A stretch of DNA of 64,000 bases from Luteibacter sp. OK325. Its GTDB lineage: Bacteria; Pseudomonadota; Gammaproteobacteria; Xanthomonadales; Rhodanobacteraceae. The DNA lies in the NCBI RefSeq assembly GCF_003050935.1, contig NZ_QAOX01000008.1, positions 1 through 64,000 on the forward strand, written 5' to 3'. The position numbers and the translations under genes were made by a program. Shown here piece by piece: positions 10,449-12,581 of the stretch (position 1 is the stretch's first letter; every line of letters begins with the position of its first letter). The notes under the pieces were generated by a model, which saw nothing but the letters and a program-made list of their open reading frames with translations, made no database searches and was not told where the DNA came from.

Positions 10449-12581
10449 TCAGACAGCCATCCTTAGTGAAGGCAGCACCTGGCCGCCGTCGTCGGCAAGG
10501 CCGGCGAGGTCGAGCACGAGGGAGATGCGGCCATCGCCGGTAATCGTCGCGCCGGCGACACCCGGCACATCCTTGAGGAACGGACCCAGCGGTTTGGCCA
10601 TGACGTCTTCGCGACCGAGCACTTCATCGACCAGGCAGCCCAGTGTCTGGTGACCGATCTGCACGACCACCACGTGACCGCCCTTCCCCGCCGCGCCGGC
10701 CCAGTTGCCGAGGTCGGCAAGCGGAAGCGCGCGCTGGCGGTGCGAGGCGACGATACGGCCGTCCAGCTCCTGGATCTGGCCGGGCACGAGTTCGAAGACT
10801 TCGGTGACATTGGACAATGGCAACGACAACAGACGGTTGCCTACGCGCACCATGAGTACCCGCATGATCGCCAGGGTAAGCGGTACCGAGAGACGTACCG
10901 TGCTGCCATGACCCACGCGCGAGTCGATCGACAGCGTGCCGCCGAGTTCGACGATCTTGGTCTTGACCACGTCCATGCCGACGCCGCGGCCGGAGATGTC
11001 CGAGACTTCAGCGGCCGTGGAGAACCCGGGGCGGAAGACGATTTCGTAGCACTCGCGCTCGTCCAGACGCGCAGCCTGCTCTTCGTCCATCAGGCCCTTT
11101 TCGACGGCCTTGCGGCGCAGGATCTCGGGATCCATGCCCTTGCCGTCGTCGGTGACGGTGATGACGATGCGGTCACCGAACTGGCCAGCGGCGAGACGGA
11201 CCGTGCCCGAGCGCGACTTGCCGGCGCGTTCGCGTACGTCGGGCATCTCGATGCCATGGTCCACCGCGTTGCGCAGCAGGTGGACCAGCGGATCGGCGAG
11301 TGCTTCGACCACGGTGCGGTCGATATCGGTGTCTTCGCCCTCGGTGACCAGCTCGATATCTTTGCCGAGCTGGCGCGCGAGATCGCGGATAATGCGCGGA
11401 AAGCGCGAGAACAACTTGCCGACCGGCTGCATGCGCATGCGTAGCACGGCGTTCTGCAGATCCTCGGCCACGCGCTCGAGCTCACCGATGGCGCGTTCCA
11501 TCGGATCGTTCGTGCCGCGCGGGGCGAGATTGGTCAGGCGGTTGCGGACGAGTACCAGCTCGCCCGCGGCATCGACGAGGCTGTCGAGACGGAAGGTGTC
11601 GACGCGGACGGTGGTGTCGGCGGTGGAGGCGCTGCGTTTTTCTGTGGGGGCTGCGGGTCTTGCAGTTGGTGTCGTCGCAACGGGGATCGCCGCTGAAGCG
11701 GCTCCCACAGGGGTAGCAGCGGTCGCTGCGGGTGGGATCGCCGATGAATCGGCTCCTACAGCAGCAGACATTGTGCCGGGGGCGGCGGTGCCGTGGAGGC
11801 TGTCGAGGAGGGCTTCGAATTCGTCGTCGCTGATGGCGTTGGGGTCGGCGGCGACGGCGGGTGTCGCGGCGGCCGGGATCGCCGCTGAAGCGGCTCCCAC
11901 AATCGCCGCTGAAGCGGCTCCCACAGGGGGTGCTGCAGACGGTATCGCCGCTGAAGCGGCTCCCACATCGGCGCCGGGGGCGCCGGTGCCGTAGAGGGAA
12001 TCCAGGAGTGCTTCGAATTCGTCGTCGTTGATCGTGCCCGAGGGGGCCGATGCCGGTGCGCGATCGTTGCGCGCGGCGTCGAGCATGGCTTCGAACTCGT
12101 CTTCGATCGGATCGTAGGCGCGCTGCGAGGACGGCGCCGAGACCGCGGGTGCAGATGCCGTCGGCGGCGACAAGGCCACCGGCGGTGCGGAGCCGGCGCG
12201 ACCCGGAATCAGCAGGCGATCGAGTACGGAACGCGGCGCCGGCTCGGCGGGAACACCCGCGTCGGCCGCACGCATCATGTCGTTGAGGAGGTCCAGCGAC
12301 TCGAGCAAGGCATCCATGAAGCCAGGGTTCAATACCACCGCGCCGTTACGGGCCTCGTTGAGAAGGTCCTCGGCGCGATGGCACAGCTCCACCATGGCGT
12401 TGAGGCCAAGGAAGCCCGCACCGCCCTTCACGGTATGGAACGCGCGGAAGACCGCGTTCAGCAGCTCGGCGTCTCCCGGCGAGGCTTCGAGGTCCACGAG
12501 CTGTTCGCCCAGGCTCTCGAGCAGTTCGCGTGCTTCGATCAGGAAGACATTGAGCAGCTCGTTGTCCAGCTCCACGCTCAT
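10449..12581 (-). CDS. cheA: Chemotaxis histidine kinase CheA with REP-built linker
   Basis: 710 aa. The P1 domain carries the phosphorylated His49 (FRAFHTVKGGAGFLG). A long Ala/Pro linker (about 110-325) replaces a recognisable P2 and holds three DEFEA(M/L)LD motifs (161-168, 187-194, 253-260) and five VGA(A/D)S(A/S)AI peptides (206, 220, 228, 275, 292) that are translated REP elements. P3 dimerisation (RLDSLVDAAGELVLVRNRL), the P4 ATPase (LLRNAVDHGIE, VTDDGKGMD, GRGVGMDVVK) and a P5 CheW-like domain (VGNRLLSLPLSNVTEVFEL) follow. It phosphorylates CheY. The start at MSVELDNELL is 7 bp after cheZ. Confidence 0.95.
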   Translation of the reverse strand: MSVELDNELLNVFLIEARELLESLGEQLVDLEASPGDAELLNAVFRAFHTVKGGAGFLGLNAMVELCHRAEDLLNEARNGAVVLNPGFMDALLESLDLLNDMMRAADAGVPAEPAPRSVLDRLLIPGRAGSAPPVALSPPTASAPAVSAPSSQRAYDPIEDEFEAMLDAARNDRAPASAPSGTINDDEFEALLDSLYGTGAPGADVGAASAAIPSAAPPVGAASAAIVGAASAAIPAAATPAVAADPNAISDDEFEALLDSLHGTAAPGTMSAAVGADSSAIPPAATAATPVGAASAAIPVATTPTARPAAPTEKRSASTADTTVRVDTFRLDSLVDAAGELVLVRNRLTNLAPRGTNDPMERAIGELERVAEDLQNAVLRMRMQPVGKLFSRFPRIIRDLARQLGKDIELVTEGEDTDIDRTVVEALADPLVHLLRNAVDHGIEMPDVRERAGKSRSGTVRLAAGQFGDRIVITVTDDGKGMDPEILRRKAVEKGLMDEEQAARLDERECYEIVFRPGFSTAAEVSDISGRGVGMDVVKTKIVELGGTLSIDSRVGHGSTVRLSVPLTLAIMRVLMVRVGNRLLSLPLSNVTEVFELVPGQIQELDGRIVASHRQRALPLADLGNWAGAAGKGGHVVVVQIGHQTLGCLVDEVLGREDVMAKPLGPFLKDVPGVAGATITGDGRISLVLDLAGLADDGGQVLPSLRMAV
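11686..11967 (-). repeat. Five in-frame REP elements inside cheA
   Basis: 24-bp REP copies at 11944-11967, 11902-11925, 11878-11901, 11737-11760 and 11686-11709 (read on the minus strand). Four have the GGGAGCCGCTTCAGCGGC core and one (11737-11760) the GCCGATTCATCGGC type; the latter has a GTAGGAGC head. All are in the same reading frame and give VGAASAAI, or VGADSSAI for the variant. Two copies are directly adjacent. Confidence 0.95.

What the first reader, a model, noticed from the sequence alone, without database searches (positions are those of the whole stretch)
11686..11967. Five REP elements domesticated in frame as the CheA linker
Intergenic-type REP hairpins occur five times within cheA, all in the same frame, each coding VGA(A/D)S(A/S)AI, with two back-to-back. 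Identical elements sit in intergenic gaps elsewhere in the window. Seen directly; inference is that REP spread into a tolerant linker between P1 and P3, expanding a protein and possibly adding mRNA hairpins within a long operon.
Basis: partly seen in the sequence, partly recalled or inferred. Interest (0 to 1): 0.8.

Follow-up and report, generated by a model that had tools for sequence, protein, structure and literature searches.

The report
REP palindromes rebuilding a CheA linker
In soil bacteria of the genus Luteibacter, a short mobile-type DNA palindrome that normally sits between genes has settled repeatedly, in one reading frame, inside the flexible linker of the chemotaxis kinase CheA, where its number and arrangement differ between close relatives while the enzyme's working domains hardly change.

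Summary
Five 24-nt REP copies lie in cheA (window 10449-12581, minus strand), all sense, read as VGA(A/D)S(A/S)AI. The genome holds 995 exact 22-mers of this REP; 310 of 356 sampled copies are intergenic. Rare codons and near-perfect identity to the REP consensus show a DNA origin. In 23 Luteibacter genomes, 7 cheA linkers carry such palindromes, of several stem types, 15 of 15 in one frame. Of 120 listed CheA relatives, 29 carry 2-5 REP peptides each (108 in all) in 29 different linkers, none in another frame. Window and P0001 have identical 489-residue cores but 5 versus 3 REPs. No sense-strand match was seen in 47 linkers from other genera of the family or in 67 other loci. Best explanation: REPs entered a disordered spacer around conserved DDEFEALLD modules and have turned over there, probably by duplication and conversion as well as insertion; the frame coding small residues is the one that persists. 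The effect on CheA is probably near neutral; domestication for a function is not shown. In-frame REPs are known; this recurrent, hypervariable array appears to be a new variant.

The parts
10449..12581 (-). cheA, 710 aa: P1 Hpt (res 8-99), linker, P3 dimerisation (323-382), P4 HATPase (430-569), P5 CheW (575-697); no P2 match in Pfam
11944..11967 (-). REP 1 (res 206-213, VGAASAAI), exact genome consensus
11902..11925 (-). REP 2 (res 220-227, VGAASAAI), head to tail with REP 3
11878..11901 (-). REP 3 (res 228-235, VGAASAAI)
11737..11760 (-). REP 4 (res 275-282, VGADSSAI), the second common stem subtype
11686..11709 (-). REP 5 (res 292-299, VGAASAAI); at the aligned site G010 carries the other stem subtype
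12078..12107 (-). first linker module, IEDEFEAMLD (res 159-168), predicted helix 158-171
11988..12032 (-). second linker module, INDDEFEALLDSLYG (res 184-198), predicted helix 186-196
11790..11834 (-). third linker module, ISDDEFEALLDSLHG (res 250-264), predicted helix 252-262; REPs 1-3 lie before it, REPs 4-5 after it

Best explanation
A 24-nt GTAG-type REP, of the kind spread by REP-associated (RAYT) Y1 transposases, was captured in the sense orientation in the disordered spacer of cheA that follows the second DDEFE module. Being 24 nt it adds eight codons without a frameshift, and in this frame it encodes small residues that suit an Ala/Pro-rich spacer. Inside the gene the copies then multiplied, were lost and were overwritten, probably by tandem duplication and by recombination or conversion with other copies in the gene and the roughly 1,000 in the genome, besides occasional new insertion. 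Selection on the domains keeps the core nearly fixed and removes unsuitable frames; the spacer is almost free to vary, so the REP array is a hypervariable spacer with small effect on kinase function. Shown: REP identity, frame, DNA-level origin, RAYT genes beside REPs, variation in number and order, and no match in the linkers scanned outside the genus. Inferred: conversion and duplication as the main local mechanism, RAYT as the source, near-neutrality.
For: REP consensus TGTRGGAGCCGMTTCAKCGGCGAW from 218 intergenic copies, no conserved flanks; 995 exact 22-mers in the genome. 9 of 11 cheA copies in three species match the consensus exactly, and 1 of 62 fourfold sites deviates against about 0.12 expected per lineage from the core (P=0.0036). 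Codons GGA, GCT and TCA are 7%, 7% and 4% of their amino acids. The last residue of the unit is I, M, K or N in 99 of 108 protein copies, as the REP ends GGCGAT/GGCGAA predict. 15 of 15 linker palindromes in 7 of 23 genomes are in one frame; with one mismatch allowed 15 sense and 0 antisense. 108 peptides in that frame and 0 in the four other open frames in 29 proteins. Core 0/489 differences with 5 versus 3 REPs, window versus P0001. At one aligned site window and G010 carry different stem subtypes between similar flanks. RAYT-type gene in 22 of 23 genomes, with a GTRG palindrome in 24 of 25 such loci. All five REP segments have pLDDT below 50.
Against: Only 3 of 46 genes with Ala/Pro-rich stretches in 2.06 Mb, cheA included, hold REPs in them, and there the REPs themselves add to the Ala content; tolerance alone does not explain cheA. 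All 29 REP-bearing proteins have at least one REP in each of the two spacers, which simple neutral turnover would not guarantee, although they are related. No empty-site DNA pair of near-identical strains could be read: P0001 and most of its like are protein records only. IAAEAAPT, a similarly Ala-rich frame, does not appear in these linkers; a composition filter alone does not predict that, although shared descent does. With two mismatches allowed, four antisense matches appear in the linkers of G008, G013 (two) and G019; none has the GTRG tag, and I treat them as chance.
Confidence: 0.72

Rival explanations
1. Selected spacer: the REP array tunes the distance or flexibility between P1, the DDEFEALLD modules (possible CheY-docking helices) and P3, and the variation is adaptive.
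For: 29 of 29 REP-bearing proteins have REPs on both sides of the third module; mean spacer 116 aa against 104.6 aa in 65 other listed proteins without this array; many module positions invariant over 47 sequences; cheA is a hotspot, 0.03 REPs expected and 5 seen.
Against: 16 of 23 Luteibacter genomes have no REP there and an open cheA frame; number and order differ between proteins with identical cores. The proteins are related, so 29 of 29 is not 29 independent cases.
Confidence: 0.15
2. Nucleic-acid role: the hairpins act in the cheA mRNA or DNA (stability, pausing, gyrase or RAYT binding) and the peptide is incidental.
For: Linker RNA folds better than shuffles, z -3.0, 0 of 100 shuffles as good; clade B palindromes differ from one another in both arms yet keep 6-pair stems.
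Against: Recent insertion or conversion also keeps stems intact. A hairpin would form in either orientation, yet only sense copies in one frame are found, which points to a filter on the protein or to shared descent.
Confidence: 0.07
3. Old protein repeat with conserved codons, from which intergenic copies derive or which they merely resemble.
For: The same peptide frame is seen in two clades.
Against: About 1,000 genomic copies, no sense match in 47 linkers of related genera, near-exact DNA identity with rare codons, different stem families in different species.
Confidence: 0.02
4. Each copy is a separate RAYT-driven insertion rather than local duplication or conversion.
For: RAYT-type gene with a matching REP in the own genome; TnpAREP of other species cuts at CT beside the REP (PMC8266576, passages), and three of the five copies have C before their leading T, i.e. 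a CT.
Against: All same orientation; inverted doublets, the usual mobile form as recalled from REPIN work, are not seen in cheA; the back-to-back 24-nt pair suggests tandem duplication.
Confidence: 0.2

Closest known systems
Intragenic GTAG/CGTC REPs (Di Nocera et al. 2013, PMC3733652; abstract and passages seen)
   Same: GTAG-tagged palindromes inside genes, sometimes grouped; the authors suggest flexible linkers or loops may make insertions neutral.
   Different: The main text has no 'CheA', 'chemotaxis' or 'Luteibacter' (term counts 0); its supplementary list of host genes was not seen. The passages seen do not describe one linker with different REP families across species and strain-level turnover.
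Rickettsia palindromic elements (recalled; mentioned in PMC3733652 passages)
   Same: Palindromic elements read in frame within proteins.
   Different: Different element and host group; here a short GTAG REP with RAYT, recurrent in one protein.
REPINs / RAYT systems (PMC8049555, start of abstract only; PMC8266576, passages)
   Same: Same element class and transposase type.
   Different: cheA copies are single or head to tail, not inverted doublets.
P2-less CheA (PMC10542144, passages)
   Same: CheA with an extended unstructured region where no P2 is found; nearly 52% of surveyed CheAs lack P2.
   Different: Repeated DDEFEALLD modules and REP-coded spacers are not mentioned in the passages seen.

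Membership tests
GTAG-type REP | GTAG-like tag followed by a short palindrome | tested here: met
   GTRG then GCCGM-TTCA-KCGGC, 5-bp stem and 4-nt loop, or 6 pairs and a 2-nt loop as counted by the script; GTGG 76%, GTAG 24%
GTAG-type REP | High copy, mainly intergenic, both orientations | tested here: met
   995 exact 22-mers; 310 of 356 intergenic, 173 on + and 183 on - in 2.06 Mb
GTAG-type REP | Cognate RAYT with REPs beside it | tested here: met
   One Y1_Tnp match in the own genome with one exact family REP in the locus, plus three copies of a variant palindrome
REPIN | Two REPs in inverted orientation as a unit | tested here: not met
   All five cheA copies on one strand
REP mobilised by RAYT into cheA | Transposition demonstrated | not testable with these tools
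   Needs experiment
CheA | P1, P3, P4, P5 domains | tested here: met
   Pfam, all over curated cut-off
CheA | P2 CheY-binding domain | tested here: not met
   No Pfam match; no profile-profile search was run
Rickettsia palindromic element | Sequence homology to RPE | not tested
   Considered only as an analogue

The most novel reading that the evidence does not exclude
Luteibacter uses its REP pool as a generator of linker diversity in CheA: REP arrays flanking CheY-docking modules are kept and reshuffled because they alter the gain or speed of chemotactic signalling between strains, i.e. selfish palindromes have become an evolvability device for a signalling kinase.
Probability: 0.12. Interest if true: 0.88.

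Novelty: new variant of a known kind. Interest (0 to 1): 0.6.

Why it matters
It gives a natural series of CheA variants that share a nearly fixed catalytic core (0 to 9 of 489 residues different from the window's in the 28 full-length ones) and differ mainly in a REP-built spacer, so the effect of linker length and make-up on chemotactic phosphotransfer can be tested directly. It also shows a selfish palindrome repeatedly filtered by reading frame and turned into protein sequence, fast enough to separate close relatives.

Tried and rejected
Chance or codon bias as the source of the repeats: rejected. Ancient protein repeat: rejected. Tolerance of any Ala/Pro-rich linker as a full explanation: not enough, only 3 of 46 such genes, cheA included, carry REPs there. 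Preference for the VGA frame across the genome: only suggestive; outside cheA 11 of 27 intragenic copies use it, 5 IAAEAAPT, 5 SPLKRLP, 4 WEPLQRR, 2 CGSRFSGD, from a home-made gene caller that surely miscalls some ends, with several copies in one gene counted apart. REP number driving linker length: weak (r=0.25). A looser whole-gene pattern (two mismatches) also rings at scattered sites in many cheAs on both strands, four antisense ones in linkers; none of those four has the GTRG tag and they were not counted as REPs. That the 29 proteins form one clade: the core tree groups the 28 full-length ones with the window, G010 and G017 and no others, but with support 0.0; by distance they have 0-9 core differences to the window and the next, P0029 without REPs, has 10. 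Searches for REPs in cheA or Luteibacter in print gave nothing relevant in the listings; intragenic REP searches gave the papers named. Searches on CheY-docking motifs in P2-less CheA listed no direct report. A first script failed on a pattern error and was replaced; one search supersedes the smaller sample.

Full report
What is there. The finding lies in cheA (10449-12581, minus strand), whose product of 710 residues has the P1, P3, P4 and P5 domains but no P2 match. Five 24-nt copies of one palindrome sit in the linker between P1 and P3, at exactly the coordinates given; none is expected by chance. All are on the coding strand and in one frame, VGA(A/D)S(A/S)AI. The order in the protein is: module IEDEFEAMLD, module INDDEFEALLD, REP 1, REPs 2 and 3 head to tail, module ISDDEFEALLD, REP 4, REP 5.

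It is a REP. A consensus from 218 intergenic copies is TGTRGGAGCCGMTTCAKCGGCGAW with no conserved flank. The genome (4.94 Mb; the window is on contig C8) holds 995 exact 22-mers, 496 and 499 on the two strands. In a 2.06 Mb sample with my own gene calls (1,688 genes), 310 of 356 copies are intergenic, 14 overlap gene ends and 32 lie inside called genes, five of them in cheA. The rate outside cheA predicts 0.03 copies in a gene of this length. One Y1 transposase match of the REP-associated type lies in the genome, with one exact family REP in the same locus. 22 of 23 Luteibacter genomes have such a gene; the one without is 80% complete. 24 of 25 of the loci hold at least one GTRG palindrome, of different types in different species.

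DNA origin. The unit uses codons that are rare here: GGA 7%, GCT 7%, TCA 4% of their amino acids. In the three genomes of the window's clade for which I have DNA, 9 of 11 copies equal the genome consensus, and 1 of 62 fourfold sites departs from it, whereas the cheA core has 21-27% fourfold divergence between these genomes. So the copies are younger than the split or are kept alike by conversion. At one aligned site the window has the C/G stem subtype and G010 the A/T subtype, both arms changed, between similar flanks; conversion from another REP is the simplest reading.

Distribution. Of 23 Luteibacter genomes, 7 have REP palindromes in the cheA linker: window 5, G010 4, G017 2, and G018, G022, G001 and G003 one each; all 15 are in the same codon phase, and with one mismatch allowed there are 15 sense and no antisense matches. 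They fall in two clades (bootstrap 100 and 99); G009, in the second clade, has none. In the second clade the palindromes have other stems. In G001 the cheA copy differs by one loop base from a form present 16 times in that genome; for G003 one copy of a form one tag base away was found. The three genomes with more than 600 copies of the window's REP are the ones with it in cheA; four with 53-314 copies have none there. A genome rich in other REPs, G014, also has none. No sense-strand palindrome of this type was found in 47 parsed linkers of 52 fetched from other genera of the family, or in 67 parsed of 75 other loci (one of the 75 is a Frateuria, by its title); one antisense match, in L242, does not carry the tag.

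Strain-level variation. A protein search listed the 120 best of 7,999 scored matches. Twenty-nine (P0001-P0028 and P0089) carry the REP peptides; P0008 is named L. rhizovicinus DSM 16549. The 28 full-length ones have 0-9 of 489 core differences to the window; the next protein, P0029, has 10 and no REP; their grouping in a core tree has no support. The 29 hold 108 units, 2 to 5 each, in 29 different linkers; in the two spacers none matches the four other open frames, one substitution allowed. No unit lies in the first linker part of the 28 full-length ones. The final residue is I, M, K or N in 99 of 108, which is what the two REP ends GGCGAT and GGCGAA would encode. Among the window and P0001-P0028, fifteen pairs have identical 489-residue cores but different linkers, some by substitutions only, others by REP number or order; window and P0001 have 5 and 3 units.

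Structure. A model from 47 sequences (mean pLDDT 68.8, pTM 0.39, so only local confidence is used) gives pLDDT below 50 for 198-249 and most of 264-329, which cover all five REP segments, and short helices at the three DDEFE modules. Many module positions are invariant over 47 sequences. From memory the modules resemble the CheY-binding helices of FliM and CheZ; this was not tested.

How it most likely works. A REP landed in a flexible spacer, in the one orientation and frame that codes small residues, and being 24 nt it cost no frameshift. Copies then multiplied and were overwritten locally. The core is under strong constraint, the spacer much less, so the REP array drifts fast. That it is near neutral is an inference. 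Against it stand the hotspot character (3 of 46 comparable genes, cheA included) and the fact that each of the 29 proteins has a REP on both sides of the third module. A selected spacer role remains possible, and so does an RNA role (z -3.0).

Known or new. REPs within genes, also in groups, were described in 2013, with the remark that flexible linkers may tolerate them (PMC3733652, abstract and passages); its list of host genes is in a supplement I did not see. Nearly 52% of surveyed CheAs lack P2, and models show an unstructured stretch there (PMC10542144, passages). My searches listed no report of REPs in cheA or in Luteibacter genes. The part that appears new is one protein linker colonised by several REP types in one genus, in one frame, with turnover between close relatives.

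Noticed in passing
window 11790-12107 (cheA linker): DDEFEALLD-type modules, two to four per linker in the sequences looked at, predicted short helices, conserved in P2-less CheAs of the family; from memory they look like FliM/CheZ CheY-binding peptides and may stand in for P2.
   Followed up: partly
L141:18249-20000 and L142:1-4971 (own genome C2:38249-44971): PKS/NRPS-like megasynthase with three REPs (two VGA frame, one IAAEAAPT frame) between a carrier domain and an aminotransferase domain, and a fourth in another frame near its N-terminal AMP-binding region.
   Followed up: partly
L141:1636-2931 (own genome C2:21636-22931): Called gene without Pfam match whose C-terminal end holds four REPs with 30-nt period, all in the VGA frame.
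   Followed up: partly
L119 and L272-L295: RAYT-type genes in 22 of 23 Luteibacter genomes sit by species-specific GTAG palindromes, a ready set for RAYT-REP co-evolution; G018's cheA palindrome resembles the REP beside a second RAYT in G020.
   Followed up: partly
L119:1189-1274: Three direct copies, 31 nt apart, of a REP variant with a different stem (GTGGGAGCCGGCTATGCCGGCGAT) near the RAYT.
   Followed up: no
P0074: A CheA named Rothia nasimurium in one source is 80% identical to the window's and looks like a Luteibacter protein; probably a mislabelled or contaminated record.
   Followed up: no
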